Origin: Sipunculus nudus
Lineage: Eukaryota > Annelida > Sipuncula > Golfingiida > Sipunculidae
Assembly (NCBI GenBank): GCA_026874595.1
Contig: CM049306.1
Span: 62,254,019 to 62,318,018 of the forward strand
Length of the DNA: 64,000 nt
Direction: 5' to 3'
Made by a program: the position numbers and the translations under genes. This document shows, one piece after another, positions 9,541 through 63,688 of this stretch. Each line of letters opens with the position of its first letter. The stretch's first letter is position 1. The notes under the pieces were generated by a model, which did no database searches, was not told the origin of the DNA, and was given only the letters and a program-made list of their open reading frames with translations.

Positions 9541-9910
9541 ATTAAACGGCACGAAAACAAGTAAAGAATAATAGGTGGCGCCACCAGTTTCTGGAACATG
9601 ACAACCCTATCCATGATCTTCCATCAACTTGATTTTGGGATCAATCAATGCAAGATTTCTTGAGATATTTAAGAATTTGTGTGATTTTCCCCACAATTGG
9701 ACCTATTCAAGGTCAAGGACACTCTCCTAGTCAAGTCATGACCTCATTTTAAATAGGCGTCGTCCTCTCACCCATATCTATACATATACCAAGTTTGGTA
9801 AAGATCCTTAAAATATGTTTTGAGTTATCGCGCCAACAAGATTTATATGCGGCGGCGGATCGACCGGTGTGAAAACAGAGTATCCCCCGACTTTGTCTGG
9901 GGATACAATA
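9541..9910 (+). mobile_element. Short hairpin-ended dispersed repeat
   Basis: Contains the 12-bp palindrome GGTGGCGCCACC (9,574-9,585), a body with AAGGTCAAGGACA and CCAAGTTTGGTAAAGATCC, a CGGCGGCGGATCGACCGG stretch, and a terminal hairpin at 9,880-9,906 with perfect arms GTATCCCC and GGGGATAC. The order body, GC-rich simple repeat, hairpin parallels the larger families here. No coding capacity. Confidence 0.5.
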
Positions 9911-10129
9911 AGATCAGGACCTGATTTAAAGAATGAATAAAGAGACTAAAACTAAATTGCAAATAAAATGATAGCAATAACCTTTTGTGTGATCGGTGTA
10001 TATATTACATATGATAGGCAGTTCTAAATAAATGTTTTTAATAAGACTTTTAATGTATTAATACTGTCTTGGCATTCGATGTATATTTCAAACGGTTGGT
10101 GCACCTCTGGTGAAGGCCCTTGACCCCAA

Positions 10130-11534
10130 TGTTTTTGTCATTGTCTTGGGAACCACAAGCGTATTGCGTTGACCGGAACTTATGCTTCTCAATTAAAAAA
10201 GACATACACAGGTGCCTGGCCATGCAGGCATTTAAATACCAAAAGAGCTAAAATTTTATATTCAATTCATGAGGAAAATGGTAGCCAGTGAAGATCCTTC
10301 ATCAACGGAGTTACATGAGCATATCTGTGGGCTCCACATACCACTCTGGCTGCAAAGTTCTGTAACATTTGCAATTTACAAAACACAAATACTTTGGGCA
10401 GCCATACAATAAAGAATTATAATAGTCCATATTTGAGCTTACAAAAGAGTGAATATGTGCTTCAACTGTTGATTTGTCTAGATACTTCTTTAAATGTCTA
10501 ATTAGTAACCTATCTCGCACACATGGTTTACATGCATGATCCAACATGTTTGAATCAAAGATTACGCCAGATTCCTGATTTTATTAACAGGCCTTATCAC
10601 TGCATTCCCTACTTTTATTTCACTGATTTTTACTTCTGCCAGTTGTTGTTTTGTTCCAAATAACAAAAATTCAGTTTTGGTGTCGTTAATTTTTAGTCGA
10701 CGGGTCAGCATTCATACTCTGACATCTGAAATACATTTCTCAAGGTTTCTGATGTGATCCATTCCCGTTTTTTTACATCCTCGTTAGTAGGCTAACTAAA
10801 GTTGGTGATCATCAGCATACCCCGCTATGAGTGGCGAGTGTTTCTCCATCACGTCATAGAGGGAGCAAAGATAGCTTAGAAATATCACAGGCCCGGCGCA
10901 GCTTCCATGCGGAACTCCACATTTCAAATAATGTTTATCAGCGATAGATTTTTTTACTGTCACTCTCTGCTCCCGATTACTCAGGTATGACTGGAACCAA
11001 CTCAGTACTGACCCCCTTCTGCTATACTGGTTCTGAAAATCTCTGCTAGGATATCCAAGCTGACCGTATCAAAAGCTGCATTTAAATCCAGGAGTAGGAG
11101 AATGGGAACTTTTTGATCATCCGTGCTGTTCACCAGGTCAGAATGAACTTTTAAAAGCAGTGTTCCAGTGCTATTGTATCTTTTATATGATGCGATTTTA
11201 TTTGCAAACATATTGATTCTTACCTTGTGACCTACATACTGTGAAAAGGCAGCCTTATATGATTTTCGAGACAAATGGTAGGTTGCTGACCGGTCTATAA
11301 TTTTCATAATTAAGTTAAGCTCCCGATTTCTTTAACAGTGGGGTCACAACCGCGCATTTCCAGTCGCGTGGAAAAGATCCTTAAACTAAAGAACTGGTCA
11401 CAATCTGTTACTGGTTCCGACAGGACATCAATTTTAATACCTCAGTCGATATTGGGTATAGAATGCAAGATTTTGTTGCTGACTGAGTGATCAATTGCTT
11501 AATCGCCGAAGCAGGCATGGGTGTAAAAGTAGAA
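10130..11534 (-). pseudogene. LINE reverse transcriptase, 3' half (CR1/Jockey-like), decayed
   Basis: Read on the minus strand, in order: T-K-S-C near 11,480, V-V-T-P-L-L-K-K-S-G-A near 11,340, then L-L-L-L-D-L-N-A-A-F-D-T-V (RT motif A), G-V-P-H-G-S-C-A-G-P-V-I-F-L (motif B), G-Y-A-D-D-H (catalytic YADD, motif C), D-Y-Y-N-S-L-L-Y-G and L-H-W-L-P-F. This is the usual order in CR1/L2/Jockey-type non-LTR retrotransposons. Several frameshifts and stops make it dead. Its 5' half continues at 14,100-15,035 beyond an inserted family B element. Confidence 0.85.
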
Positions 11535-14099
11535 AACAAGGCACCCATGGGTCACGGTGCTCAGCTTAAGTCTAAAATTTTTGCAAATGCAAAATATTCT
11601 GTTTTTATGTTTTTCATTTATATAAGCATATGAGAAGCTAAGAGGAAAGAGGCCCTCCTACTTGGTTATAGTAAAGTTCTAAATATTCGATTGCAAACTA
11701 ATACTCTGACAAGATTTTCATGAAGAAAAACAGTAAAAGTTTTGAGATACTGTGATGCATATGAAAAATTTACAGATGGACAGGCCAGTGGACAGAATGG
11801 ACTAATACCTTTATTTCACTTTCAAGGGAATAATGCATTTAAGTTTATATATAAGCCTATTATTTAAGCATATCCACTTTTTCCATTAAAATAGTTTTTA
11901 TCTGATTGATTTTTTTATTTACAGGTTTTATAAATTTGTATTAAAAAACACTGAAAATATAAGTTAGAATATTAGAATTCTAAGTTGCAATCATTATATA
12001 TCCAGAGTGTAGCTCATATTGGGTCATATCATGCATACACATATATTTTTATTATTTTTAAATCACAAATGTTTAAACTGAATTAAAAAGAAAATAATGC
12101 CACATCATGGCATCTACAAGATTATTCCTTGAATCACTATTAAAATGTTTTGCACATTGGATTTAGTACATGCTTAATCTTATTCGTCGAAATAAAGTAA
12201 AAGATTCAGTAAATTTGGTAAAATAAAAACATATTTTAAAATAAAGTATACACACTGTTGGTTGAATGAGGGACAACAATATCATTTTGCTAATTACAAT
12301 CTAAGCTATAATTTATTACTGGAATTAATAGTCAATTTCACACCTGGAGAAGTTTTTACTCTTCTCAAGTAAGGAATTTCTTATCTGATGAACATCCACA
12401 CTTTCATAGCAATACACCTCTTTGTGGACACAATTAAATGTGCACTTTAATAATTGTAACCTTGGTGGTAAATACAAAATCTAAAATGTAGCATTGCATA
12501 GCCAAGAATAAAATGAAATACAGAAAATTATAACATTCATCCAGTGAATGCACCATCGGGGGGGGGGGGGGGGGTGCAGGGCAGAGGGGAAGCCTGCTAG
12601 TAGTGGCCAGGCTGAGCCAAGGCAAGCTGCCTGGGGTGGGTTACATAATGCAAGTGAAGGCTGTACTACTTGGTGGGCTAGATGTAAACAACACTTGACA
12701 TGGTGTATGAAAACTTGAAGAAAAGCTACTCTTTTCAATCAATTCCTTTGAAATTTCAGATTTTAAAAGTTCAAATCCTTATGTATATATGCTGTGAAAA
12801 TTAAATCAACAGTGCTTACAGGGAAAAAAACGTGTCTTTGCCAAAGTTGGACAAAATTTAAGGTTTTGATTTTTTATTTATGCTAAAAACTGAAAAATTT
12901 GCAAAATTCAGATCGTATTTTTGGGTAAACAATTGAATCTTGATTAAATAAAGTTATATTCCTGAAAAAAAGTCTCCAGCTTCAGCAATTCTCATCTTAG
13001 GTGAGTAAATATATTTCTTGATTTTTTAAAAAGTGCATTATGTTTGGGCCCATAACTGAAAAAAATACGTAATACTGACATCAATTCTGGCATGTGCATA
13101 GCGAATGCATAGAAAAATATGTATATTATATTTGATCAAAGTCAGATCAGTGGTTTTGATATAAGGCAGTCTTAAAGTGTAACAATGGGTTTTTAATGGA
13201 AAAATGAAGTTTTTCATTAATATCTCGAAGGAAATAAGTCCTAGTGACCAAATTCTTGGCATGATAGGGGATTTTGGAGACATCTAAGTGTATGCCAAAT
13301 TTAAGGAACTTAGAGCTAAAGCTCGGGAGCTGAGCTCTAGCAAACTGCATAACACTAGCTTGATGTAAACAATATGTGACATGGTGCTTGAAAACTTGAA
13401 TAAAATTTACAGTTTTTGATCAACTGGTTTCAAATTTTTGGTATTAACAGTTGAAATGCTAACAATAACATGCTTTGGAAATTAAATCCACAGCAGTTAC
13501 AGGAAAAAAACGTGCCATTGTCAAATTTGGGCAAAATTTAAGGTACCAATTTTTTATTTTTGCTAATATTTAAAAAAAATTAAAAAGATTTTGATCTAAT
13601 TTTGGGTATACAATTTAATATTGATTAATAAAAGTAAAATTACTGGAAAAAAGTGCTTAGCTCTAACATGTTTTGTGTTAAGTGATCAAATTTCTTTCCT
13701 GATTATTTACAAAATGCATATGGTTTGGGCCCATAACTTTTTTATATTATATAATACAGACCTAATTTCTGGCATGTACATAGAAACTGTATAGAGGATT
13801 ATTTATGGTAAATATGAGGAAAAACAGATGAGTGGTTTTGATGTTAGGCAGTCCTGAAGTGTGAAAATAGGTTTTTAATAAAAAAATTGAGGTTTTTCCA
13901 AATTTCTCAAAGGAACGAAGTCGCAAAGACCCAGTTTTCGGCTTGGTAGGAGATCTTTGGGACATCTAACATTATGCCGAATTTTTTATTCCTAGGTCTT
14001 GCGGTTTCAAAACGTGCCACATCTACGGACAGACGGACGGACGACGGACAATGGACCACGACTATAGCTCAGATGACTCATAGTCAGCTGAGCTAAAAA
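11535..14099 (+). mobile_element. Family B tandem-core element (B1), inserted in a LINE
   Basis: Starts with AAACAAGGCACCCATGGGTCACGG and a CTCAGCT copy, and ends with a GGACAGACGGACGGACGACGG-like tract (about 14,026-14,050) and a hairpin at 14,066-14,094 (arms AGCTCAGATGACT and AGTCAGCTGAGCT) followed by AAAAA. Two core copies of about 690 bp begin near 12,790 and 13,470, each with CAGGAAAAAAACGTG, GGGCAAAATTTAAGG-like and TTTGGGCCCATAACT. A G17 tract lies at about 12,557. No coding capacity seen; reading frames inside are core repeats. Confidence 0.75.
14066..14094. repeat. Terminal hairpin of family B element
   Basis: 13-bp stem with one mismatch and a 3-nt loop, preceded by a GACG-rich simple repeat and followed by AAAAA. 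The same structure ends every intact family A and B copy in this window. Confidence 0.8.
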
Positions 14100-15035: not shown

Positions 15036-15059
15036 AAGGGAATGAACTGAGTGGTTCAC

Positions 15060-15905: not shown

Positions 15906-16622
15906 TATGTAATTAAGTAATTCAGCGAAAATATTTCAAACAACCACCAATGGATAATGAACAGTTTACTATAGACCAGAGAGTGATCAAGATGGTTCAA
16001 GCATCAATAAACAATGATATTATTCTATGCCCTTTATTATTCAATGATTTTACACAAAACATCAAATAAATCCGATCATATGATGATCACTTTGCTTGTG
16101 TTAATACATTAAATAACATTCGAATAACTGCCAGTGTAAACACCACAGGTATATTTTAACTGATACAAATTCCAGCTTAAACTCTGGGAACTAAATACGT
16201 ATTAGGGTATAAAGATTCTTTATCAAACAATTTTATTACACTTTTCCCAGCGAAAACAGTTACCAATGTTTTATCCTGCAAGCCAAGCTCTGGGTTACAT
16301 AATATTTAGAATGTTTAAACTGGCCTGGCTGTACCAATGTCAAGAACTTGGCCAATGTAAATCATTGACAAATCAAACATAGATTCCGACTACAAACATC
16401 TGACACTCTGACAACCAATTTAACATTTACCTCCAATCTGTATCATGTGTAACCTTGTATCAGTTGGCATGAACCTTTTACAGATCTCTGATACACTGAG
16501 TTTGTTTTGAACTTTATACATGACACCTGTTTGACACGTTGTTTATTAATGCTTTCTAGTAGTATTTTGTATGTCTGTAAGCATTTTATATGATCACTGC
16601 AGACTATTTTACATAGGCTGAA

Positions 16623-20760: not shown

Positions 20761-20769
20761 ATGAAAGAC

Positions 20770-50700: not shown

Positions 50701-53700
50701 ACGTTAAAACATGTACGACCGGAAATGGTCCTAGCTGGCGTGCCCTCGATCGGGCCCTGTCTTGTATATGCGGTCACCCATCCAAAAACTAACCGGGGTC
50801 ATTTAAACGTAACTAAGATGACCGGACCAACTGTGTCACAGTTGTTCCACCACGCGTGCTTCCCCGTGCTTGGTAAATATTATTGCTAATTATCCCACGT
50901 GAATCACACACGAGACACGTGCGTACCAGGAATGGTAGACGAGTTTGCTTCGTCACGGACACCCATTTGGAACTTGAACGCTTTATCATGTTTATATATT
51001 ACGAAAAACGCATCTTTGTATCTTCAAAAATTTTATTGCAAACAAGTTTGACGTGGATGCTCAGTGAAAAAAAAACTAGTCAGATACAAACTGCGGTGCC
51101 CGTGAGAGACGGAGGCATTACACCTTAACATCGTCGACAGAAAACATCGTCGGCAGTCGCGAAATTAGAGTCATTTTAGAAATTATGCTTTCAAAATATT
51201 TTTTGGGGTCGAGAAATAAGAGGGATCGCCAAATTGGAATAAATACGGTAACATAAAAATGTTGATATAAACAAAACAAGCAATTCTGTGTGAGGTGATA
51301 TCCATGTTTTCTGGCCTATTTTTATGAAAGCTCCAAGGGATTACCTTTAGTTTATATAAGTCAGACAGGTGATTGGGCCCCTTTAAGCAAATTCTTAAAT
51401 CCTTGAGATTTATGATAAATATATACACTGTCCTTGCATAAATTCTTAAACTTGAAGGTTCATGATAATTGTATACACTCTCCTAACATAAAACCCAGAG
51501 TCAAACCTGGAGTTAGTAAACAGGATACCTGTCCAGAGAATGTCAATGTTTTTGTTGAGTTTTTTGCCAATTGTCTGCAGGTACTCTGAGCGAGGCAAGT
51601 CTGGCACGGTTCTGGAGGTGCAGTATTCTGTAAAATATTAAGATTGAACTTCTAATCCTGTCAACTTATATAGCAACCAGACAGTCTGAACCTTTCAATG
51701 GATTGAAAAGCTGATGCATATTAAATGACAAACATATTTTAACTGATGTAGAGTGCCATCTGCAAAAATTTATACGTTTTACATAAAAAGTACATTTGTG
51801 CCACAAATGTTCACCAATGTTCTTATGAATTATCTTAATTTAGTTTTAAACTGAACACAAGATTGGGCTTAAAAGTCAAAAACTTATCATTATAATAAAG
51901 CAATACATTCAGGATATAGCATAATTTGAATAATAAATCCATTTGCCATCTCCAAACACATGTTCAAAAATTGAGTAAAAAATATCATTTTTGACTGGTA
52001 ATAAATAAATTAAATTAATTATCAACAAAAAGTCTTTCTCAAAAAATGAAATTTTACTAGTGAAATATAAAGCATGTAAACAGGTATGATTAAAATGACT
52101 CACCTGTTGGACAAAAAAGGAAGACCTTTGGTTCTTTGAGGTATGAGTAGATTTCATTAGTCACTGAGGACTGTGCATGTGCAAAGGAATCAAACACCTC
52201 TTCATCAGCTTCACACAGCTCATCTTCGATATCATCAAACAACAAGGCAAAGGCTGAACACCCCAGATCAGCAACCTGTACAGACACACACTTCTCTGGT
52301 TAAAGAAGCAAGTTGTGGAATTGTAACTGATTAATGAGGTCTCTCCTAGGATATAATAGTTTTATATCTTTTTTTGTATCATTTTAATGGGAAAACTCAA
52401 ATCAATGTCAATGTGCACATTTGACGTTTCACTTTATTTGTATCTACCTTAAAACTGAAATTTTAAATTTTGATTCAAAATTCAACATTTGAAATTCAGT
52501 TTTTAATAAGGAAGACACAGCAGAGGAAAAAACTACATTAATTTAGATAAGGGCCAACCAACTAAAAAGTGGCTGACTGTTACTGGGTGCTTAGAAAATA
52601 TACCTTTAAATTTTATAATGTTACAAAATCATGTTAAATTAATTTAAAAATATGTATACCACCAGAAAGAACACTGTGCCAGGGTTATAATGATGTTCAT
52701 GTTATGGGTATGTTATGAATTTAAAACAACTTTTAGACATAGGGGTATTTGCCTATCCTGCTACCTTAATAACAAAGCAAACAGCCTGGACTGTTGCTTT
52801 ATTAAGATCATGGTAATCTGATTTTCAATTTGACTGTCTGGCACAATATAACATTTTGATATTACAGTACCTGCTGCAGCTTCTGTTTGAGAATGGTCAT
52901 CTCTGTCTCGCTACAATATGTGATGTCTAGTCCTGGAGAAAGTGCGTACACAAAAATGACATCATTTGTTGAGGCTGCCTTTATCAAATTCTTCAAGTCA
53001 TCTGGAAGGAAAAAGCAGGAAATAACAAAATAAACATAAAACTAGAAACATTTGTTAAATTTTGAAAAAATTTTTAAGTTCAGGAGGTGTCTTATGGTCA
53101 AAAGTAGGTCAATAAGGGCAAAATGCAAACTCGATCTGTAACTGGTCATTATCTGCCCACACAGCAAAAATCAGGCCAATATCTGCAGGTATTGCGAAAA
53201 AAGTCTGTACATGTGTATTTGTCATGAAAATTTTTATTTTTTATGAAATTTTCTATGTTCAGGAGCCGTAAAACAGTCAAAAGTAGGTCAACTGGGACGA
53301 AACATGAACTCGATCCGTAACTGTCATTATCTGCCCACACATAAAAAATCAGGGTGGTATCTGCAGGCATTGAGGAAAAAAAGTCTGTACATCTGTATTT
53401 GTTATGAAAATTTCTATTTTTCATGAAATTTTCTATGTTCAGGAGCAGTCAAATGGTCAAAAGTAGGTCAACTGGGACAAAACAAGAACTCGATCTGTAA
53501 ATGGTCATTATCTGCCTACGCACCAAAAATCAGGCCTGTATCTGCAGGCACTGCGAAAAAAAAATCCGTACATGTGCACTTTTTTATGAAATTTCTATGT
53601 TAGAGCACCGTCAAAGGGTCAAAAGTAGGTCAACTGGGACAAAACGTGAACTTGATCTGTAACTGGTCAGTATCTGCCCACACAGCAAAAATCAGGCCAA

Positions 53701-55670
53701 TATCTGCAGGTATTGCAAAAAAGTCTGTACATCTGTATTTGTTATGAAAATTTATATTTTTCATGAAATTTTCTATGTTCAGGAGCAGTCAAATGGTCAA
53801 AACGTAGGTCAACTGGGACAAAACAAGAACTCCATCTGTAACTGGTCATTATCTGCCTACGCACCAAAAATCAGGCCTGTATCTGCAGGCACTGCGAAAA
53901 AAAGTCTGTACATGTGCACTTTTATAATGGAATTTCTATGTTAGAAACATTTGTTAAATTTTGAAAAATTTTTTAAGTTCAGGAGGTGTCTTATGGTCAA
54001 AAGTAGGTCAATAAGGGCAAAATGCAAACTCAATCTGTAACTAGTCATTATCTGCCCACACAGCAAAAATCAGGCCAATATCTGCAGGTATTGCGAAAAA
54101 AGTCTGTACATGTGTATTTGTCATGAAAATTTTTATTTTTTATGAAATTTTCTATGTTCAGGAGCCGTAAAACAGTCAAAAGTAGGTCAACTGGGACGAA
54201 ACATGAACTTGATCCATAACTATCATTATCTGCCCACACATAAAAAATCAGGGTGGTATCTGCAAGCATTGAGGAAAAAAAGTCCGTACATATGCATTTG
54301 TTGTGAAAATTTCTATTTTTTTCATGAAATTTTCTATGATCAGGAGCAGTCAAATGGTCAAAGGTAGGTCAACTGGGACAAAACAAGAACTCGATCTGTA
54401 ACTGGTCATTATCTGCCTACGCACCAAAAATCAGGCCTGTATCTGCAGGCACTGCGAAAAAAAGTCTGTACATGTGCACTTTTATAATGAAATTTCTATG
54501 TAAGAGCACTGTCAAACTGTCAAAAGTAGGTCAACTGGGACAAAACGTGAACTCGATCTGTAACTGGTCATTATCTGCCCACACAGCAAAAATCAGGTCA
54601 ATATCTGCAGGTATTGCAAAAAAGTCTGTACATGTGTATTTGTCATGAAAATTTATATTTTTTAATGAAATTTTCTATGTTCAGGAGCCGTAAAACGGTC
54701 AAAAATAGGTCAACTGGGACGAAAAGTGAACTCGATCTGTAACTGTCATTATCTGCCCACACATAAAAAATCAGGGTGATATCTGCAGGCATTGAGGAAA
54801 AAAAGTCCGTACATATGCATTTGTTATGAAAATTTCTATTTTTCATGAAATTTTCTATGTTCAGGAGCAGTCAAATGGTCAAAAGTAGGTCAACTGGGAC
54901 AAAACAAGAACTCCATCTGTAACTGGTCATTATCTGCCTACGCACCAAAAATCAGGCCTGTATCTGCAGGCACTGCGAAAAAAAGTCCGTACATGTGCAC
55001 TTTTTTAATGAAATTTCTATGTTAGAGCACTGTCAAACTGTCAAAAGTAGGTCAAAATGTTCAGGAGCCGTAAAACGGTCAAAAGTAGGTCAACTGGGAC
55101 GAAATGTGAACTCAATTTGTAACTGGTCTATATCTGCCCACACACCAAAAATCAGGCCAATATCTGCAGGCATTGCGAAAAAAAGTCCGTACAACTGTTT
55201 GATTTCGGAATGACGGAAGGACGGAATGACTGTGGCGGGGGCATAAAAATCAATATGATATAGAATGAATATTTTTTTAAAACTGACCTATTACATGAAA
55301 GCTTGCACTGGTAACTGAATAAGGTGACAGTAAACCCTGTAAATATATAGTTTCACTGGTTTATGGTTTTTGTATGAGCTAGTCTTAGAATTATCCTGAT
55401 ATCACAGAACTGTTGAAGTTAGGTGTATATTATCAAGCTCTTTGGCCATATATGGATTTGAACTTGGCACCATCTAACATCGTAAATTGGTTTATCTTTA
55501 AAATTAAAACACAAAAATATATCTGCTTTTTCCTCATCTAAGCTTTTAAACCTTGAGGGAGGTCATTCACACCTTGCTCAGATGGTGTGTATGAATCACG
55601 CCAGCATACACGATGCTTGTTGTCATCTTTTGGAGCATACATGTAGGTGTTCATTTTCATCATCTTCATC
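23468..55670 (-). CDS. OGA: Protein O-GlcNAcase (OGA), 3' part of gene, 13 exons, 5' end missing
   Basis: OGA removes O-linked N-acetylglucosamine from Ser/Thr of nuclear and cytosolic proteins, opposing OGT. The model joins 55670-55573, 53001-52871, 52275-52104, 51627-51529, 49262-48978, 47290-47088, 43507-43298, 39480-39297, 30640-30555, 28073-27972, 27099-27008, 24982-24790 and 23779-23468; every junction is AG/GT and in phase. It encodes 721 visible residues. Through the GH84 domain the numbering equals human OGA minus 84, so K98, D174, D175 (catalytic pair), Y219, W278, N280, D285 and N313 are all present, at visible residues 14, 90, 91, 135, 194, 196, 201 and 229. A short low-complexity linker follows, then the helical stalk (about 340-490) and the C-terminal acetyltransferase-like domain (about 510-715). 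The disordered linker is shorter than in human (916 aa). The N-terminal segment with the GFYGRPW motif was not found in the window. Introns run from 476 bp to 8.7 kb, the long ones filled with repeats. Confidence 0.93.
24230..24737. mobile_element. Small TA-flanked TIR element (Tc1/pogo-like MITE) in OGA intron
   Basis: Left end CAATGAAACCTC and right end GGGGTTTCATTA are inverted, with ACAGCAGA and TCTGCAGA further in. TA dinucleotides flank both sides. The interior of about 500 bp has no transposase. TA targets and ends of this type suggest a pogo/Tigger-like or mariner MITE; the class is tentative. Confidence 0.5.
24790..24982 (-). CDS. OGA: OGA visible exon 12 (HAT-like domain core)
   Basis: Acceptor TTTACAG after a T-rich run, donor GTATGT. 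Encodes [26 protein letters not shown], and W-F-P-K-M-Q-Q-K-Y. Human has D-Y-C-F-V-L-E, G-I-C-G-Y-A-L-G-T and W-I-P-F-M-Q-E-K-Y. Visible residues 554-618; phase 2 to phase 0. The human domain is considered a pseudo-acetyltransferase; nothing here argues otherwise. Confidence 0.94.
26382..26786. mobile_element. hAT-type MITE, 405 bp, in OGA intron
   Basis: Ends CAGTGATGTA and TACATAAGTG are imperfect inverted repeats flanked by a perfect 8-bp target duplication TGTCAGTC (26,374-26,381 and 26,787-26,794). Subterminal AGTCAAGTCC / GGACTTGAGG-type repeats fill both ends. No coding capacity. Lies in the OGA intron between 27,008 and 24,982. Confidence 0.85.
27008..27099 (-). CDS. OGA: OGA visible exon 11 (HAT-like domain)
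   Basis: Acceptor ATTACAG, donor GTAAGT, phase 0 to phase 2. Codes [14 protein letters not shown], matching human S-V-Y-K-I-C-R-E-M-Y-D-D-G, then [11 protein letters not shown] against human P-D-L-I-G-D-K. A different frame here is longer and open, but only this one fits the family and the flanking phases. Confidence 0.9.
27972..28073 (-). CDS. OGA: OGA visible exon 10 (start of HAT-like domain)
   Basis: Acceptor ATCCTCAG, donor GTAAAT, 34 codons in phase 0. Begins R-L-L-P-M-E-G and ends [14 protein letters not shown], matching human R-L-L-P-I-D-G and K-V-Y-T-I-R-P-Y-F-P-K-D-E. The Y-T-I-R-P strand opens the GNAT-fold C-terminal domain. Confidence 0.92.
29199..29234. repeat. Two poly-C tracts in duplicated CAGGCAGCCCCC
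   Basis: GACAGGCAGC followed by a long C run occurs twice in tandem, so the tract and its flank duplicated together. Confidence 0.7.
29889..30515 (+). mobile_element. Family B element, short and internally deleted (B5)
   Basis: Begins ACAAGGGACCCATGGGTCACG with GCTCAGCTGA and ends with CCAGACGGACAAAGGACC and a degraded hairpin (ATAGCTAAAATGA...). Only the last part of one core is present (TTTGGACCCATAACT, GGAGATTTTGGGG). Ends 40 bp from OGA visible exon 9. Confidence 0.6.
30555..30640 (-). CDS. OGA: OGA visible exon 9 (stalk to HAT-like junction)
   Basis: Acceptor TTTACAG, donor GTGAGA. Codes [19 protein letters not shown], then R-G-G-L-H-S-E-F-R, matching human Q-E-P-W-A-F-R-G-G-L-A-G-E-F-Q. 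Phase 1 to phase 0. AGG is kept in the exon so that F-R joins R-L-L-P in the next exon; a splice one base earlier would break frame. Confidence 0.9.
31477..31817 (+). mobile_element. Family B left-end fragment
   Basis: Starts ACAAGGGACCTTTGGGTCACGGCGCTCAGCTG like other family B left ends but is cut by the hairpin end of a family A element at 31,821, so no core or right end is present. The remainder is AT-rich. Confidence 0.45.
31821..31849. repeat. Perfect terminal hairpin of family A
   Basis: Arms AGCTCAGATGACT and AGTCATCTGAGCT pair without mismatch around a TTC loop. Most other copies have G instead of T in the second arm (AGTCAGCTGAGCT), giving one mismatch. Confidence 0.85.
33871..35009 (-). 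mobile_element. Family C tandem-core element nested in A1
   Basis: Starts with a hairpin (33,871-33,900; arms GTATCCGCCAAAAC and GTTTTGCGGATAC) and ends with TTTTGGCAGATAC (34,997-35,009), a 12/13 inverted match to the start. Inside are three units of about 275 bp, each with CATATCTC(G/A)GGAACC(G/A)TTTGACCGAT and TTGATTTTATGACAGGTGG. The 12-bp palindrome GGTGGCGCCACC occurs four times. Same layout as family D. Family A sequence stands on both sides, so it was inserted into A1. Confidence 0.7.
36150..37454 (+). mobile_element. Family B element (B2), two cores, hairpin end
   Basis: Core copies near 36,190 and 36,860 share GGGCAAAATTTAAGGTAC, TTGGGCCCATAACTT-like and GGTAGG(G/A)GAT motifs with B1; the period is about 670 bp. 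The right end is GGACCACGACTATAGCTCAG with the hairpin at about 37,421-37,449. The usual left flank with CCCATGGGTCA is not seen, so it is 5'-truncated. Confidence 0.7.
37727..38679 (+). mobile_element. Family A element (A3)
   Basis: Left flank AATGACCCAGGGGTCATGAAG with AGGAAGACATTC, two to three degenerate cores (GGGTAACAGAGACCTAATTT near 38,200), a short GGACGGACGGACACC tract near 38,611, and a hairpin end at about 38,646-38,674. Confidence 0.65.
38984..38998. repeat. (GT)n microsatellite, short
   Basis: About seven GT units. Confidence 0.7.
39297..39480 (-). CDS. OGA: OGA visible exon 8 (stalk domain)
   Basis: Acceptor TTTGCAG, donor GTAGGT. Encodes [11 protein letters not shown], then [18 protein letters not shown], ending I-K-W-L-G. 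Human has N-R-T-I-L-Y-D-M-Y-S-Y-V-W-D-I-K-S-I and V-Q-W-L-G at the same place. Ends in phase 1. An 8.66-kb intron, the longest seen, follows and holds family A, B and C repeats. Confidence 0.92.
40137..41135 (+). mobile_element. Family A element (A4)
   Basis: Left flank ACAAGTGACCCATGGGTCATGACG with CTCAGC, cores with GGTAACAG(A/C)GACC near 40,360, 40,695 and 40,950, the palindrome GGTGGCGCCACC at 40,533-40,544, a G18 tract at about 40,901-40,918, a GGACAGACGGCTGGACGGACG tract and hairpin end at about 41,100-41,130. Confidence 0.7.
41380..41545 (+). mobile_element. Family B right-end relic
   Basis: Contains GGAGAACTTGGGGACATCTTACTGTATGC-like sequence, TTTCAAAATGTTC, a decayed CCAACAGACGG tract and ATAATCAGCTGAGCTAAAAAC, the end of family B with most of the hairpin's first arm lost. 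Confidence 0.55.
41678..41860 (-). CDS. Unrecognised 60-codon intronic reading frame
   Basis: Starts [24 protein letters not shown] with an acidic/charged N-terminus that looks protein-like, in a somewhat CpG-richer patch (TCATCGGCCGATTCC). It lies inside an OGA intron on the same strand, upstream of the stalk exon at 39,480. It could be an alternative first exon, a relic of another gene, or chance; no clear splice donor was found. Confidence 0.2.
   Translation of the reverse strand: MESADDARMQREQLKFDHKLSSSSSMGRARMPVKCLFIDFWLAACHIIHFSADNEPPSGV
42024..42072. repeat. Perfect 19-bp inverted repeat
   Basis: Left arm CCAGTTGTGGCTCTGTTGT (42,024-42,042) and right arm ACAACAGAGCCACAACTGG (42,054-42,072) with an 11-nt loop. 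Outside the arms, GGACTCAATAT (about 41,999) and ATATTGAGTCC (about 42,094) extend the inversion with gaps. Confidence 0.85.
42095..42565. mobile_element. TIR element, 471 bp, 46-bp inverted ends
   Basis: Ends 42,095-42,140 and 42,520-42,565 are inverted repeats matching at 41 of 46 positions, opening TATTGAGTCCGATAGC and closing GCTGTCGGACTCAATA. The interior has no transposase. No convincing target duplication was read. Its left end also forms the right flank of the 19-bp foldback at 42,024-42,072. Confidence 0.7.
42670..42715. repeat. Small hairpin (ACAGCGCTT...AAGCGCTGT)
   Basis: Arms ACAGCGCTTACCATATAGG and CCTATAGGAAAAGCGCTGT pair with about 16 of 19 bases around a short loop, about 100 bp from the 471-bp TIR element. 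More likely an element end than an RNA gene. Confidence 0.5.
43298..43507 (-). CDS. OGA: OGA visible exon 7 (linker end and stalk start)
   Basis: Exactly 70 codons, phase 0 at both ends; acceptor GTAAAAG is pyrimidine-poor, donor GTAGGA. Begins E-E-K-T-S-P-A-A-A (linker), then L-E-D-L and [15 protein letters not shown], matching human Q-L-L-A-D-L-F-Y-L-P-Y-E-H-G-P. This helical stalk mediates OGA dimerisation in known structures. The acceptor was chosen because it keeps frame and removes an upstream TAA. Confidence 0.88.
43708..45977 (+). mobile_element. Family A element (A2), about six cores
   Basis: Left flank CAAGTGACCAATGGGTCATG and CTCAGCTGACTGGGAAGAG; cores of about 330 bp marked by GGTCTCAAAAATAGAGAAAA-like sequence near 43,866, 44,108, 44,450, 44,922, 45,262 and 45,580; tail GACAGACAGACGGACGGCGG, then ATCACTATAGCTCAGCATGA and AGTCAGCTGAGCTAA. 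Between about 44,100 and 44,700 a segment with GAGGTGGCGCACCCAGTC is duplicated. In an OGA intron. Confidence 0.75.
46010..46440 (+). mobile_element. Short two-core repeat with GGACGGACAGAC tail
   Basis: Two diverged units of about 140 bp (AAGACCTTGACCTTGGACC and CTTGAATTTTGACCTCATGACC, each followed by a CAAAA(A)T(T/C) segment and GGTGAG(C/T)CAT) end in TGGACGGACAGACAAAGGGACC. Same body-then-ACGG-tail arrangement as the larger families. Confidence 0.5.
47088..47290 (-). CDS. OGA: OGA visible exon 6 (end of catalytic domain and linker)
   Basis: Acceptor ACCAAG after a pyrimidine run, donor GTACAG. Starts in phase 1 with a charged stretch ([14 protein letters not shown]), then [14 protein letters not shown] matching human Y-S-P-Q-M-A-L-K-L-A-L-T-E-W. 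The Ser/Thr/Asp-rich tail begins the disordered linker; the caspase-3 cleavage region of human OGA lies in this stretch, but no clear DEVD-type site is seen here. Ends in phase 0. Confidence 0.85.
47690..48790 (+). repeat. About 145-bp tandem array (family F), seven units, in OGA intron
   Basis: GGGAAAGCTGCAGTA recurs near 47,790, 47,936, 48,081, 48,222, 48,367, 48,513 and 48,658. Each unit also has TTGTTGAGTTATCGCG, AAATCAGCGATC, GTGGCCATATTGGAATTCC and GGTCTGGAGCCCTCAT. The last unit runs into GGAAGGACAGATGGCCGGAAGG, then GATCACTATAGGGCACC, and a terminal hairpin CCGCTTG-T-CAAGCGG near 48,762. So it is probably a hairpin-ended tandem-core element like the others. Confidence 0.8.
48978..49262 (-). 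CDS. OGA: OGA visible exon 5 (GH84 domain, [11 protein letters not shown])
   Basis: Acceptor CCACAG, donor GTAATT. Longest catalytic-domain exon, visible residues 167-262. It carries G-P-K-V-V, then [13 protein letters not shown], and [11 protein letters not shown]. The equivalents of human W278, N280, D285 and N313, which hold the GlcNAc ring, are all present. The open frame runs on past the donor, but the family alignment and GTAATT place the splice at M-T-D-N-D-T. Confidence 0.95.
49847..51382. mobile_element. TTAA-target element (piggyBac-like, non-autonomous)
   Basis: Flanked by TTAA at 49,843-49,846 and 51,383-51,386. Removing it restores a continuous minisatellite unit (ACTGTCC-TTAA-GCAAATTCTTAAATCC), good evidence for a TTAA target duplication. 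Ends AGGTGCTCATTCACCT and, inverted, AGGGGCCCAATCACCT match at 13 of 16 bases. TTAA targets are characteristic of piggyBac transposons. No transposase remains; the interior holds a second element. Confidence 0.75.
50178..51250. mobile_element. TIR element nested inside the TTAA element, 1,073 bp
   Basis: Left end TACCATATTTATTCTAATTT plus GGCGA and right end TCGCCAAATT plus GGAATAAATACGGTA are inverted repeats of about 25 bp. ACA stands on both outer sides (possible 3-bp target duplication). GGTCGAGA-type subterminal repeats occur near 50,231, 50,283 and 51,207. No transposase frame. Superfamily uncertain. Confidence 0.65.
51529..51627 (-). CDS. OGA: OGA visible exon 4 (GH84 domain, Y219 region)
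   Basis: Acceptor TTTACAG, donor GTATCC; both ends are phase 1. The split codon gives E-Y-C, where the Tyr is human Y219. The exon ends I-D-I-L-W-T-G, matching human I-E-V-L-W-T-G. The segment between ([14 protein letters not shown]) is a surface loop that differs more from vertebrates. Confidence 0.92.
52104..52275 (-). CDS. OGA: OGA visible exon 3 (catalytic Asp pair)
   Basis: Acceptor GTACAG, donor GTGAGT. It codes for [16 protein letters not shown]; the adjacent aspartates (visible 90 and 91) equal human D174 and D175. In GH84 substrate-assisted catalysis, D174 stabilises the oxazoline intermediate and D175 is the acid/base. The rest (F-A-H-A-Q, T-N-E-I-Y, F-L-F-C-P-T) is nearly identical to vertebrate OGA. 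It ends in phase 1. Confidence 0.95.
52871..53001 (-). CDS. OGA: OGA visible exon 2 (GH84 domain, SPGLDIT motif)
   Basis: Acceptor TTCCAG and donor GTACTG flank an exon that starts in phase 1 and ends in phase 0. It codes for D-D-L-K-N-L-I-K, then [15 protein letters not shown], the GH84 strand equivalent to human I-Y-A-I-S-P-G-L-D-I-T. It ends in K-L-Q-Q, matching human K-L-D-Q just before the catalytic strand. Visible residues 33-76. Confidence 0.92.
53040..55260. repeat. About 180-bp tandem array (family E), about 12 units, in OGA intron
   Basis: ATCTGCC(C/T)AC recurs near 53,151, 53,329, 53,509, 53,672, 53,852, 54,050, 54,229, 54,410, 54,576, 54,754, 54,932 and 55,131. Units share CAAAAGTAGGTCAACTGGGAC, GAACTCGATCTGTAACTGG, AAAAATCAGGCC and ATCTGCAGG. 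The right end reads GGAATGACGGAAGGACGG, the simple-repeat tail seen in other families. Alternate units resemble each other more than neighbours do, suggesting a higher-order two- or three-unit repeat. Long frames are by-products. Confidence 0.8.
55573..55670 (-). CDS. OGA: OGA visible exon 1 (GH84 domain, YAPKDD motif)
   Basis: Acceptor CTGCAG lies just above 55,670 and donor GTGTGA just below 55,573. One base of a split codon comes first, then 32 residues, leaving phase 1. It contains [10 protein letters not shown] followed by K-H-R, matching human OGA around K98, which contacts the sugar. The repeated Met/Lys codons at its start (MKMMKM) replace the human LQKWEL stretch. This is an internal exon: the preceding GFYGRPW-coding exon is missing, so it is not the translation start. 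Confidence 0.9.
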
Positions 55671-58610: not shown

Positions 58611-59812
58611 AACAAGTGACCCAGGGGTCATGACGCTCAGCTGACTAGGAAGACATTGACAAAAGTAATTTTATCATCTGAATGTCAAATTTGAATGAAA
58701 TACTTTTTCCAAACTTGACCTTTTGTATAAAATCATCCAATATTCATTGGGGTACTATGGAGCTCTGTAGCATGAAGGATATGGGTAACAGACACCTATT
58801 TTCAAGGTTTACAAGATGACTTTTCAGGGGTCTCCCAGCATGTCAAAAAATAAAATTCTAGGTCCAGTTATTATGATTTGTGCCCTGTTAACAAATCCAA
58901 ATGTTTATTCTGGGGGGTATTTCAAAGCCGCATAGGATGAAGGATATGGGTAACAGAGATGTAATTTCAGGTGCACAAGGAGACTTTTCAGGGGCCTCCC
59001 AGCATATCAAGAAAGGAGATTCTAGGTCAAGTCATTATAATTTGTGCTCTGTTAACAGATGACCAAATCTTTATTCTGGGGAGTACTTCAGAGCCCCAGA
59101 GCATGAAGGATATGGGTAACAGGGACCTTATTTCGGGTTTCCATGTAGACCTTTTATGGGCTTCCCTGGAGGTGAGGACAGAAGATTCTAGGTCCAGTCA
59201 TTATGATTTGTGCCCTGTTAATATATGACCAAATCTTTATTCTGGGGGGTACTTCAGAGCCCCATGGCTCACAGAATATGGGTAACAGGGACCTTATTTC
59301 GGGTTTCCATGTAGACCTTTTATGGGCTTCCCTGGAGGTAAGGGCAGAAGATTCTAGGTCCAGTCATTATGATTTGTGCCCTGTTTACAAATGACCAAAT
59401 GTTTAAAGATCACAAAAGTAGAGAAAAAAAATCGTAAAAAATAAAAAAAATATAGGTGGCGCCACCAATCTCCAGAAATTGATGAAACACTCCATGATCA
59501 ATATCCATGCAAAGAATCATGGTGATTTATGCATTAGTTGTTCAGATACTTGAGCTTTTGTATTAAATTTTGCATTATTCTGGGGGGTACTTCAGAACCC
59601 CATAGCTCGAAGAATATAGGTCACAGTGACCTAATTTCAGGTTTAAAAGGAGAATTTCCATAGACCTCCCAGGATTTCAAGTAAGAAGATTCCCGGTCTA
59701 GCGGTTACAATTTGTGCCCTGTTAACAGACAGACGCCTGGATGGCCGGACGGACGACGGACAAAAGGTGATCCCTACAGCTCAGATGACTTTCAGTCAGC
59801 TGAGCTAAAAAT
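58611..59812 (+). mobile_element. Family A segment (A5) with left flank and hairpin end
   Basis: Left flank AACAAGTGACCCAGGGGTCATG and CTCAGCTGACTAGGAAGACA; partial cores with GGGTAACAG(A/G)GA near 58,785, 58,950, 59,117 and 59,282; shortened units of 165 bp (58,920-59,400) next to one full core; tail GCCGGACGGACGACGG near 59,745; hairpin end at about 59,778-59,806. Confidence 0.7.
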
Positions 59813-60331
59813 TGAAAAAATACAGGTGGTGCCACCAGAATGCAGAAACTGATGAAACATTTCATGATCAATATCCATGCAAAGAATCATGGTGATCAAT
59901 ATAATAATTGTTCAGATACTTGAACTTTTGTATCAAATTTTCCATTATTCTGGGGGGTACTTCGGAGCCCCATAGCTCAGAGGTTATGGGTAACAGAGAC
60001 CTAATTTCAGGTTTCCATGGAGACTTTTCATGGGCCTCTCAGCATGTCAAGAGAGAAGATTCTTGGTCCAGTTGTTACGATTTGTGCCATGTTAACAGAT
60101 GACCGCATCTTATGAGGTCTCAAAAATAGAGAAAAAAATTCGTAAAAATAAAAAAAAATACAGGTGGCGCCACCATACTGCAGAAACTGATGACACATTC
60201 CATGATCAATATCCATGCAAAGAATCATGGTGATCACTGCAATAGTTGTTTAGATACTTGAGCTTTTGTATCAAATTGTCCATTATTCTGAGGGATGCTT
60301 CAGATGACTTACAGTCAGCTGAGCTAAAAAC
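59813..60331 (+). mobile_element. Family A segment (A6), fused directly to A5
   Basis: Begins in mid-core (ATTGAAAAAATACAGG) immediately after the A5 hairpin, without the left flank. One full core with GGTGGCGCCACC at 60,163-60,174. Ends near 60,331 with GATGACTTACAGTCAGCTGAG but without the ACGG tail, so the end is internally deleted. Confidence 0.65.
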
Positions 60332-62348
60332 ACTTAATGGTCAATATCCATGCAAAGAATCATGATGATCTCCGTATTAGTTGTTCAGATACTTCAGTTT
60401 TTGTATCAAATTGTCCATTATTCTGAGGGATACTTCAGAGTCCTATAGCTTGAAGGATATGGGTAACAGAGACCTAATTTCAAGTTTCCACAGGCACCTT
60501 TCATGGGCCTCCTTGCATGACAAGAATGAAGATTCTAGGTCCAGTTGTTGCGATTTGTACCCTGTTGACAGATAACCACATCTTTAAAGGTCTCAAAAAA
60601 AAGGAAAAAAATTCGTAAAAATTTGAAAAAAAATAGAGGTGGCACACCCAGTCTGCAGAAACTGATGGAACAGCTCATGATCAACATGTATGCCGAATAT
60701 CATGACCATCAGTGTTGTAGTTATTGAAATACTGCAGTTTTTGTATCAAATTTTCCATTATTCTGGGGGGGGGGGGGGGTATTTTGGACCCATACAGCTT
60801 AAAGAATATGGGTAACAGAGACCTAATTTCAAGTTTTCATGGAGACTTTTCATGGGTCTCCCTGTGTGTCAAGAATGAAGATTCTTGGTCCAGTTTTTAT
60901 GATTTGTGCCCTGTTAACAGATGTTCATATCTTTAAAGGTCTCAAAAATACAGAAAAATTTCGTAAAAAAAACCGAACAAATACAGGTGGTGCCACCAGT
61001 CTGCAGAAACTTATGAAACACTCCATGATCAATATCCATGCAAACAATTATGGTTATCTCTGCATTAGTTGTTCAGATACTTTAGCTTTTGTATCAAATT
61101 TTACATTATTCTGAGCTGTACTTTAGAGTGCCATAGCTCAAAGGATATGGGTAACAGAGACCAAATTTCAGGTTTCCATGGAGACTTATAATGGGTCTCC
61201 CTGTGTGTCAAGAACGAAGATTCTAGGTCCAGTTGTTACGATTTGTACCCTGTTGACAGATAACTACATCCTTAAAGGTCTCAAAAATGGAGAAAACAAT
61301 TTGTGAACATTGAAAAATACAGGTGGCGCCACCAGTCTGCACAAACTGATGAAACATCTCATGATCAATATGTATGTCGAAAAATCATGACCATCAGTGA
61401 TGTATTTAATGAGATATTGAAGTTTTTGTATGAAATTTTTGACTATTCTGGGGGATAATTTTGGGCCCCATAGCTCGAAGGATATGGGTAACAGAGACCT
61501 AATTTCTGGTTTCCATGGAGACTTTTCATAGGTCTCTCAGTGTGTCGAAAATGAAGATTCTAGGTCCAGTCGTTACGATTTGTGCCACGCTAACAGATGA
61601 CAGCATCCTCAAAGGTCTCAAAAATAGAGGAAAAAATCGTAAAAAATCAAACAGTACAGGTGGCGCCACCAGTCTGCAGGAACTGATCGAACATCTCATG
61701 ATCAATATGTATGCCAAAAATGAAGACCATCAGTGATGTAGTTATTGAAATATTGAAGTTTTTGTATGAAATTTTTTACTATTCTGGGGGGTACTTTGGG
61801 GCCCCATAGCTCGAAGGATATGGGTAACAGAGACCTAATTTCTGGTTTCCAAGGAGATTTTTTATGGACCTCTCAGTGTGTCAAGAATTAAAATTCTAAG
61901 TCCAGTCTTTATGATTTGTGCCTTGTTAACAGATGTTCACATTTTTAAAGGTCTCAAAAATAGAGAAAAAAATTCGTAAAAAATCGAAAAATACAGGTGG
62001 CGCCACCAGTCTGCAGGAAGTGATGTAACATCTCATGATCAATATGTATGCCAAAAATCATGACCATCAGTCAAGTAGTTAATGAGATATTGAAGTTTTT
62101 GTATGAAATTTTTGACTTTTCTCGGGGGTACTTTGGGGCCACATAGCTCAAATGGATATGGGTAACAGAGACCTAATTTCTGGTTTCCAAGGAGATTTTT
62201 TATGGACCTCTCAGAATCCCAAGTTACAAGGTTCTAGGTCCAGCGGTTACGATTTGTGCCTGGTTAACGGACGGACAGACGGACAGACGGACGACGGACA
62301 AAGAGTGATCGCTATAGCTCAGATGACTTTCAGTCAGCTGAGCTAAAA
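60332..62348 (+). mobile_element. Family A segment (A7), about five cores
   Basis: Again begins in mid-core (CACTTAATGGTCAATATCC) straight after a hairpin. Cores near 60,460, 60,810, 61,150, 61,490, 61,825 and 62,160; palindrome GGTGGCGCCACC at 61,322, 61,659 and 61,996; a G13 tract at about 60,766-60,778; tail GGACGGACAGACGGACAGAC; hairpin near 62,316-62,345. Confidence 0.7.
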
Positions 62349-62715
62349 AATTGAAAAATACAGGTGGCGCCACCAGTCTGCAGGAATTGATGAAACATCT
62401 CATGATCAATCTGTATGCTAAAAAAATGAACATCAGTGATGTAGTTAATGAGATGTTGAAGTTTTTGTAGGAAATTTTGACTATTCAGGGGGGTACTTTA
62501 GGGCCCAATAGCTTGAAGGATATGGGTAACAGAGACCTAATTCCAGGTTTCCAAGGAGATTTTTCATGGACCCCTCTGGATGTAAAGTGAGAAGATTCCA
62601 GGTCAAACGGTTACGATTTGTGCCCTATTAACGGACAGACGCCCGGACGGCCGGACGGCCAGACGGCCTGACAGCCGGACGGACAAAAGGTGATCCCTAT
62701 AGCTCAGATGACTCA
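62349..62715 (+). mobile_element. Family A segment (A8), single core, hairpin lost
   Basis: Starts ATTGAAAAATACAGG after the A7 hairpin, one core with the palindrome at 62,363-62,374, then a long GCCCGGACGGCCGGACGGCC tract. Ends TATAGCTCAGATGACTCACA, where only the first hairpin arm remains. Confidence 0.65.
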
Positions 62716-62849
62716 CAACATGGCATCTTTTAGACTACACCTCGAATTACTTTTTCCAGGAAATTCTATATTGGAGTGGAAACAGCATTACAATTAAGGA
62801 GATACAGTGAAAACAATAACAATTACTGCATAACACTTGGTGGGTTCAG

Positions 62850-62870
62850 TTTTTTTTTTTGGGGGGGGGG
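62850..62870. repeat. Poly-T then poly-G tract
   Basis: A T10 run passes directly into a G10 run. Confidence 0.8.
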
Positions 62871-62999
62871 GATTGGGTGGTGATTTGAGAATAACGGTAC
62901 ACCTGTTACTGCAGGGGATCTCCCCCAGTGACTGTAACAAATTAGAAACCCTGGCATAGCTGTCTAGCTAAAAATCAATAACTTGCCTAATTTTCAAGC

Positions 63000-63688
63000 T
63001 TTAATTTTAAAAAATTTTAGATTTAAACAAATCAAATACTTATGTTTACATGGTGTGAAAATTAAATCAATAGTACTTACAGGAAAAAAACGTGCCATGG
63101 TCAAAGTTGGGCAAAATTTAAGGTACTGATTTTATTTTTATGCTAATAACTTAAAAAATTTACAAAATTCAGATCTAATTTTGGGTAAAAAATTGAATCT
63201 TAATTAAGCAAAGTTTTATACTTGGGAAAACAGACTCAGGTTTCAAAATTTTTCATGTTAAGTGAGTAAATATTTTTCCTGATTTTTTTACAAAGTCTAT
63301 TATGTTCCGGTACATAACTTAAAGAAATCATATTTTATGGACTTAATTTCTGGCATGTATATAGAAAATATAAAGGAAATTACTTCTGGAACATATTAAG
63401 AAAAACAGATAAGGGGTTTTGATATTAGGTAGTCCTGATGTGTGATAATAGGTTTTTAATGGAAATTTGAGGTTTTTCCTGGATCTCAAAGGAACCAAGT
63501 CATATTGACCCAATTTTCGGTATGGTAGGAGATTTTGGGGAAATCTAACAGTATGCTGAATTTTGGATTCATAGGTCTTAAGGTTTTAAAACGTGCCAGT
63601 CTAACGGACAGACAGACGGACGGACAATTGACAGACAATGGACCAGGACTATAGCTCAGATGACTTATAGTCAGCTGAGCTAAAAACA
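63000..63688 (+). mobile_element. Family B element (B3), one core, hairpin end
   Basis: One core (CAGGAAAAAAACGTGCCATGG, AAAGTTGGGCAAAATTTAAGG) ending in GACAGACAGACGGACGGAC, then GGACCAGGACTATAGCTCAG and the hairpin near 63,653-63,681 plus AAAAA. The left flank is missing. The last 310 bp of the window after it show no recognised gene. Confidence 0.7.

What the first reader, a model, noticed from the sequence alone, without database searches (positions are those of the whole stretch)
9541..63688. Several hairpin-ended tandem-core element families with one shared layout
Families A (core about 336 bp), B (about 680 bp), C (about 275 bp), D (about 150 bp), F (about 145 bp) and the 9.5-kb element share a layout: tandem cores inside, a hairpin of 7-13 bp stem at one end and, in C and D, an inverted copy of the hairpin arm at the other. 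A, B, E and F add an ACGG/GACG simple repeat before the end. Core sequences differ between families. This resembles pearl elements of bivalves and HINE/Helentron derivatives, which move by rolling-circle replication. No Rep-helicase is present here, so their mobiliser is unknown.
Basis: partly seen in the sequence, partly recalled or inferred. Interest (0 to 1): 0.75.

Follow-up and report, generated by a model that had tools for sequence, protein, structure and literature searches.

The report
Non-autonomous Helentrons (HINEs) with tandem cores
The repeats are several families of small 'hitch-hiker' jumping elements (non-autonomous Helentrons, or HINEs) with matched ends around tandem repeats, a kind already described from oysters and other invertebrates, here in an unidentified animal-like genome.

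Summary
The layout is real, but it is a known one. Read from the hairpin end, A/B, C and D show: T-run, 5' subterminal inverted repeat (subTIR) with its complementary repeat (the hairpin), tandem cores, 3' subTIR, palindrome, CTTGT; A and B add a GTCY microsatellite. This is the published HINE plan (Cg_HINE of Crassostrea gigas). Support: (1) hairpin arms of A, C, D and F pair with their own family's 3' end, each score reached by 0 of 2000 shuffles. (2) Element C sits in an A copy at a T-run; an intact A paralogue shows no target duplication. None of seven end-pairs has a junction repeat above 2 nt; a hAT element in the window shows an 8-bp one. (3) 13 of 17 counted 5' ends follow at least five Ts. 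(4) No Rep/helicase match in 64 of 64 ORFs of 85 aa or more. Corrections: the hairpin is the 5' end; A and B share ends; A, B, C and 9.5-kb cores are distantly homologous; E has no hairpin. C and F carry CTAG at the 3' end, as reported for some oyster elements. New members of a known kind; the mobiliser cannot be identified from this window.

The parts
1565..4773 (+). Family D HINE: T5, hairpin 1570-1599, ~149-bp cores within 1927-3089 and 4090-4575, 3' subTIR TTTCCGGCAAG, palindrome TGACC..GGTCA, TCTTGTT; interrupted by a hAT element 3087-4089
9541..9911 (-). 9.5-kb element (fragment): hairpin 9880-9906, core with GGTGGCGCCACC at 9574-9585 distantly related to A and C; no 3' end found
11535..14099 (-). 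Family B HINE: hairpin 14066-14094, GTCY microsatellite, two ~680-bp units, 3' subTIR and palindrome near 11535-11565; flanks are LINE-like by my reading
29889..30520 (-). B-type copy with one partial core; 3' end 29889-29925, degenerate 5' hairpin near 30500-30520
31104..31460 (-). C-type fragment: core 31365-31460 (weaker to 31237) and 3' end GGCAGATTCATG...CTTGTT...TTCTAG at about 31104-31150
31816..35225 (+). Family A HINE: T5, hairpin 31821-31849, GTCY microsatellite 31865-31906, 336-bp cores, 3' subTIR 35190-35201, palindrome 35206-35219, CTTGTT; interrupted by element C
33866..35041 (+). Family C HINE nested in A at a T-run: T5, hairpin 33871-33900, ~280-bp cores with two GGTGGCGCCACC each, 3' subTIR, GTCACTTGT, ends TTCTAG
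36109..37454 (-). B-type copy, 5' hairpin 37421-37449; no 3' end found; its hairpin end lies at a G-TT site in a C-type core
37457..38824 (-). C-type element G: core pieces 37457-37712 and 38684-38790, hairpin 38796-38824; interrupted by an A-type copy and bordered by a B-type copy
37723..38679 (-). A-type copy nested in G; hairpin 38646-38674, eroded 3' end with palindrome 37730-37743
40136..41134 (-). A-type HINE, both ends; hairpin 41101-41129, 3' end 40136-40171
43678..43712 (-). F-type 3' end: subTIR GCGGGGCC, TGACTTGTCA, TTCTAG; not joined to the F cores at 47.7-48.7 kb
43715..45975 (-). A-type HINE, both ends; uninterrupted where C entered the 31-kb copy (empty-site paralogue 43830-43975)
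47684..48781 (-). Family F: hairpin 48759-48781, degenerate GTCC/TTCC microsatellite, 145-bp cores; no 3' end found next to it
53040..55249 (-). Family E: T5 and GTCC/TTCC microsatellite at one end, 180-bp cores, TTCTAGTT at the other; no hairpin and no subTIR pair seen
58611..62713 (-). Chain of four A-type 5' ends (62702-62713 half hairpin, 62316-62344, 60297-60325, 59778-59806) and one 3' end (58611-58646)
63012..63686 (-). B-type copy with hairpin 63653-63681 and one core

Best explanation
The repeats are HINEs: non-autonomous Helentrons that carry satellite-like tandem repeats, in at least four end-types (A/B, C, D, F). Inferred mechanism: a Rep/helicase made by an autonomous Helentron elsewhere in the genome recognises the subTIR plus its complementary repeat at the 5' end and the subTIR-palindrome-CTTGT at the 3' end, copies the element by rolling-circle replication through a single-stranded intermediate, and joins it into a T-run without duplicating the target. 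The cores are passengers whose number varies by unequal recombination. That recombination, after elements inserted into each other's T-rich cores, would also explain a chain with four 5' ends and one 3' end. Shown: end anatomy, family-specific pairing of the two ends, T-run insertion, no target duplication, nesting. Inferred: rolling circle, the partner enzyme, the recombination step.
For: The A, C, D and F hairpin arms score 12, 11, 12 and 8 against their own 3' end (0 of 2000 shuffles each); against a 3' end of another subTIR type the lowest shuffle fraction is 0.029 (variant A arm on D), the rest 0.10 or higher. Hairpins exceed shuffles in the A, B, D and F copies folded. GTCACTTGT occurs 7 times vs 0.85 expected; 5 of 7 lie at 3' ends of A-type or C elements. 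TGACCCATGGGTCA: 8 matches at up to 2 mismatches vs 0.23 expected, 7 of 8 at A/B 3' ends. Empty site for C in A, only the number of Ts differs. 7 of 7 end-pairs without a junction repeat above 2 nt. 13 of 17 counted 5' ends preceded by T5 or T6, against 0.7% of positions. Same substructures in the same order as Cg_HINE (PMC7492417); same target behaviour as HINE-Mo (PMC4067079).
Against: No autonomous Helentron in the window. Few, old copies per family; only C has a clear empty paralogue, and T-runs hide the exact junction. The A 3' palindrome does not fold better than shuffles (z -0.97). GTCY microsatellite absent in C, D and the 9.5-kb element. E lacks hairpin and subTIR. C and F 3' ends carry CTAG as in Helitrons, not the plain CTTGTT of A, B and D. 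The arms and 3' windows were chosen by eye before the pairing test, and the F 3' end is not joined to the F cores.
Confidence: 0.9

Rival explanations
1. They are MITEs moved by a DDE transposase, as DINE-1-like elements have sometimes been annotated.
For: A hAT element with a dimerisation-domain fragment lies inside D, and inverted repeats are present near both ends.
Against: No junction repeat above 2 nt at 7 of 7 end-pairs, while the hAT shows an 8-bp duplication. The far-end inverted repeat is subterminal (about 24 bp in for A), and the long hairpin is at one end only.
Confidence: 0.03
2. They are ordinary short satellite arrays that spread by recombination, and the ends are just flanking repeats.
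For: Cores are satellite-like (145-340 bp), and array length varies between copies.
Against: The same ends go with cores of different length and low similarity (A and B), the two ends of A, C, D and F-type pair within family, and C is precisely inserted in A.
Confidence: 0.04
3. They are, in part, canonical Helitrons (5' TC, 3' CTRR, A|T insertion) or a Helitron/Helentron intermediate.
For: The 3' ends of C (two copies) and F carry TTCTAG. PMC7992393 (passages) reports oyster elements with CTAG ends of which 257 of 751 have subTIRs, and suggests intermediates.
Against: No 5' TC seen. Of 13 ends with T5 or T6, 8 have A and 5 have G before the Ts, so no fixed A|T rule. A, B and D end in CTTGTT. 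TTCTAGTT by itself is not rarer than chance (5 vs 3.58 expected).
Confidence: 0.15
4. The cores are retrozymes or other ribozyme-bearing repeats copied through RNA.
For: Tandem units of 150-350 bp (size resemblance recalled, comes from no call).
Against: No Rfam family reaches its gathering score in the window; six weak hits at E up to 1, none a ribozyme.
Confidence: 0.01

Closest known systems
Cg_HINE elements of Crassostrea gigas (PMC7492417: outline, Results, Discussion part 1 of 2 read)
   Same: 5' subTIR + complementary repeat + microsatellite (GTCY in several), central tandem repeats, 3' subTIR + palindrome; T-rich insertion, no target duplication; several unrelated families; no autonomous partner assigned.
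   Different: Most cores here are 145-340 bp and up to ~680 bp, against 138-181 bp there. C, D and 9.5-kb elements have no microsatellite. Sequence identity could not be compared: their consensus is in figures and supplements.
Pearl elements (CvA, CvE, CvG of Crassostrea virginica; MgE, DTC84), as cited in PMC7492417 and PMC11136912 (passages)
   Same: Short arrays of central repeats between conserved flanks.
   Different: Sequences not available here; reported central repeats about 160 bp, up to six copies.
DINE-1 and HINE-Mo (PMC4067079: passages and one section read)
   Same: subTIRs, 3' stem-loop, optional microsatellite and tandem repeats, T-rich/TT insertion, variable terminal Ts, no target modification.
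   Different: A-type 3' subTIR lies about 24 bp from the 3' end, against 38-60 bp reported for HINE-Mo.
Helitron-like elements with subTIRs of oyster (PMC7992393: passages read)
   Same: subTIRs with a 3' CTAG, as in C and F here.
   Different: No 5' TC and no A|T rule seen here.

Membership tests
HINE (non-autonomous Helentron) | Inverted subTIRs at both ends, family-specific | tested here: met
   A/B, C, D and F-type (F 3' end not joined to F cores); not met in E; no far end found for the 9.5-kb element
HINE (non-autonomous Helentron) | Complementary repeat beside the 5' subTIR (hairpin) | tested here: met
   absent in E
HINE (non-autonomous Helentron) | Palindrome after the 3' subTIR | tested here: met
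   A/B TGACCCATGGGTCA by sequence, though its fold is no better than shuffles (z -0.97); D z -3.8; C and F only short palindromes by eye
HINE (non-autonomous Helentron) | Microsatellite next to the 5' end | tested here: inconclusive
   Present in A and B, degenerate in E and F, absent in C, D and 9.5 kb
HINE (non-autonomous Helentron) | T-rich insertion without target duplication | tested here: met
   one clear empty paralogue only
HINE (non-autonomous Helentron) | No coding capacity | tested here: met
   No Rep/helicase match at E 0.01 in 64 of 64 stop-to-stop ORFs of 85 aa or more; shorter ORFs not scanned
HINE (non-autonomous Helentron) | Shared ends with an autonomous Rep/helicase Helentron | not testable with these tools
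   No genome held
Pearl elements | Sequence relation of flanks or cores to described Pearl elements | not testable with these tools
   Pearl sequences not in the collections used
Canonical Helitron | 5' TC and A|T insertion | tested here: not met
   listing of 5' ends; 5 of 13 T5/T6 ends have G before the Ts
Canonical Helitron | 3' CTRR | tested here: inconclusive
   CTAG in C and F 3' ends, not in A, B or D

The most novel reading that the evidence does not exclude
Ends and cores are exchangeable modules. One ancient core lineage, marked by GGTGGCGCCACC in A, C and the 9.5-kb element, travels between element families whose subTIR pairs differ, while each family's two ends keep matching each other and CTTGT stays shared. 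This would mean that the two subTIRs change in concert to follow different Rep proteins, and that the core is kept because it helps the element (for instance as a protein-binding or fold-back site) and is not a passive satellite.
Probability: 0.2. Interest if true: 0.5.

Novelty: new member of a known kind. Interest (0 to 1): 0.3.

Why it matters
It adds several HINE families with different but self-matched end pairs in one locus, so the question that PMC7492417 left open (which Helentron moves which HINE) becomes a direct end-matching search once the genome is named. The cross-family core homology gives a testable case for exchange of satellite cores between transposon ends.

Tried and rejected
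Iterated nhmmer profiles gave very strong A-B links but had absorbed members of the other family; I discarded those E-values for between-family claims and used single-family profiles with Markov decoys. GGTGGCGCCACC as a specially conserved site: within A cores its mean conservation (0.912) is equalled or exceeded by 74 of 319 twelve-column windows, so selection on it is not shown. TTCTAGTT as a shared end motif: not rare by itself. GGTCACTTGTT with 2 mismatches: 26 seen against 16.6 in 30 mononucleotide shuffles, too loose to use. Pairwise consensus alignment of cores: A-B z 2.4, A-C z 4.5, A-D and A-F nothing; the script stopped with an error before the other pairs. In one search, three rows were opposite-strand reads of palindromic hairpins (38646, 59778, 62316) and were dropped; three ends listed (62-kb half hairpin, B at 30.5 kb, the 46-kb candidate) were not in that count. 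Exact patterns in viral contigs and genome contigs: none. Six A/B end and core strings as text in papers: none. Ribozyme reading: no support. Two Pfam hits below cut-off inside cores (Gln-synt_N E 0.0058; LAP1_C E 0.0015) are taken as chance.

Full report
What is there. Tandem arrays are real: about 336 bp (31905-33870, 44661-45895, 60378-62268), 280 bp (34101-34941), 149 bp (2522-3081, 4160-4530), 145 bp (47735-48704) and 180 bp (53068-54499). Self-comparison adds the ~680-bp B units at 12.7-14.1, 36.1-37.5 and 63.0-63.7 kb and shows that 31816-33833 and 60325-62349 are inverted copies 96.5% identical. The segments I mapped as HINE-like total 25,163 of 64,000 bp (boundaries set by hand). The window carries an O-GlcNAcase-like exon (NAGidase PF07555, E 1.3e-20, 48820-49332, minus), a reverse-transcriptase fragment (RVT_1, E 9.9e-17, 16617-17351; a second at 10796-11068 is below the cut-off) and a hAT fragment. 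So it is eukaryotic and animal-like by inference; the species is not known and no genome is held. A mollusc is a guess from resemblance and was not tested.

Orientation and anatomy. Read from the hairpin side, an A element (31816-35225) is: TTTTT, AGCTCAGATGACT-TTC-AGTCATCTGAGCT, CTATAGCGATCACACTTTGTCC, (GTCY)n, cores, AGTCAGCTGAGC, TGACCCATGGGTCA, CTTGTT. This is the order given for Cg_HINE: 5' subTIR, complementary repeat, microsatellite, central repeats, 3' subTIR, palindrome (PMC7492417, Results read). A/B hairpins are found at 9 loci at up to 3 mismatches, with none expected in 100 shuffles, and a strict A 3' end at 4 loci, with none expected; the looser listing adds B and eroded A 3' ends.

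Families. On the element strand the three B hairpins match the shared pattern without mismatch and the six A hairpins with 0 to 3. Judged on the 5' subTIR, A and B would be one family by the rule quoted in PMC4067079 (at least 11 bp identical subTIR). C (33866-35041), the G element (hairpin 38796-38824) and the 9.5-kb element (hairpin 9880-9906) have GTATCC-type hairpins; D has GCTTGCCGG, F GGCCCCGC. E starts with T5 and a degenerate microsatellite and ends TTCTAGTT, but shows no hairpin.

Pairing of the two ends. I aligned the reverse complement of each hairpin arm with each 3' end. Own-family scores were 12 (A), 11 (C), 12 (D) and 8 (F), each reached by 0 of 2000 shuffles. The A arm also matched the B end (10; 0 of 2000) and its variant scored 8 there (0.008), as expected from shared ends. 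Among arms against 3' ends of another subTIR type the lowest shuffle fraction was 0.029 (variant A arm on the D end); the rest were 0.10 or higher. The arms and 3' windows were picked by eye first, and the F-type 3' end used (43678-43712) is not joined to the F cores at 47.7-48.7 kb, so F is the weakest case.

Insertion. Element C lies in the 31-kb A copy; the 43-kb A copy is intact there. Around the insert stand T5 and TTTT, in the intact copy seven Ts; no other base is duplicated. An A-type copy in the G element sits where C-type monomers read G-TT, again without visible duplication, but that comparison is with diverged paralogous monomers and its 3' end is eroded. For seven end-pairs (A 31-35, A 41-40, A 45-43, the A chain 62-58, B 14-11, D, C) the exact junction repeat is 0-1 nt, and 0-2 nt after trimming Ts. 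The hAT element 3087-4089 in D shows AAATCTAC on both sides, so such a duplication can be seen in this DNA. Of 17 5' ends counted (16 with a hairpin, plus E), 12 follow exactly five Ts and one follows six; three follow two and one none; 0.7% of all positions follow TTTTT. Before the T5/T6 stands A in 8 and G in 5 of 13, which does not fit the A|T rule of Helitrons. This matches HINE-Mo behaviour (PMC4067079, section on target sites read).

Cores. Single-family profiles were searched against the other families with Markov decoys. The B profile hits A cores at up to 35.6 bits (E 5.7e-11; best of 340 decoys 5.5), the C profile hits an A core at 23.4 bits (E 7.6e-7; best of 360 decoys 6.5), the A profile hits the 9.5-kb element at 27.1 bits (E 3.9e-8; best of 280 decoys 6.6). 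The reverse A-to-B search is weaker (11.6 bits, E 0.002), and A to C weaker still (8.5 bits, or 10.6 for G). The D, E and F profiles find nothing above their decoys; the A profile gives E 6.7 bits, level with its best decoy. GGTGGCGCCACC (up to 2 mismatches) occurs 33 times against 0.37 expected, 30 of them in A, C, G and 9.5-kb cores, but inside A it is not conserved beyond the rest of the core. So A, B, C and the 9.5-kb element carry distantly related cores, partly behind different ends. PMC7492417 reports the converse (related flanks with unrelated repeats) in its group 2.

Chains. Between 62713 and 58611 there are four A-type 5' ends (the outermost cut in the hairpin loop) and one 3' end. 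Two of the four stand at the same T-run of a core (CAATTTTT). Nested insertion followed by recombination between direct core repeats would remove the inner 3' ends; this is inference.

Two kinds of 3' end. A, B and D end CTTGTT. C (two copies) and F continue after CTTGT to TTCTAG. TTCTAGTT alone is not rare (5 against 3.58 expected), but 4 of the 5 sites are at element ends (C, C-type, F, E). PMC7992393 (passages) describes oyster elements with CTAG ends, a third of them with subTIRs, as possible intermediates of Helitrons and Helentrons; C and F may be of that sort.

Mobiliser. Exact patterns for A/B, C and D hairpins, the A 3' end and an A core piece gave no match in viral contigs, nor did two A-type end patterns in genome contigs, as expected for eukaryote DNA. 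PMC7492417 (Discussion part 1) likewise could not assign an autonomous partner to Cg_HINEs.

Verdict. By most features that I could test in A/B, C and D it is a set of HINEs: new members of a known kind. Not met or open are the microsatellite in C and D, the weak fold of the A 3' palindrome, and the autonomous partner. Interest is modest; the new points are the self-matched end pairs across families in one locus, the hidden core homology, and the CTAG-ended subset.

Noticed in passing
3079-4097: A hAT element (dimerisation-domain fragment at 3480-3740, PF05699 E 1.1e-10) with CAGGGTTGGGG ends and 8-bp target duplication AAATCTAC sits inside HINE D.
   Followed up: partly
48820-49332 and other minus-strand stretches: O-GlcNAcase-like exon (PF07555); by my reading further exons lie near 24.8-25.0, 39.3-39.5 and 47.1 kb (no Pfam match there), which would make many of the elements intronic.
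   Followed up: partly
16617-17351 and 10796-11331: LINE reverse-transcriptase fragments; by my reading the flanks of B 11535-14099 belong to one LINE, so B may be inserted in it.
   Followed up: partly
53040-55249: Family E: 180-bp array with Helentron-like T5 start and TTCTAGTT end but no hairpin or subTIR.
   Followed up: partly
49375-49847 and 51389-51492: A 51-bp tandem unit occurs at two places 1.5 kb apart; GTCACTTGTT at 50077 nearby looks like a lone Helentron 3' motif.
   Followed up: no
46330-46432: Possible further end-type: short hairpin 46378-46396 followed by GTCTGTCCGTCC, and GTCACTTGT at 46423 on the other strand.
   Followed up: no
1014-1141 and 6433-6561: Two imperfect CTATTA/TATTAC arrays 5 kb apart.
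   Followed up: no
42019-42077: 24-nt inverted repeat, 92% complementary, 11 nt apart, perhaps a MITE.
   Followed up: no
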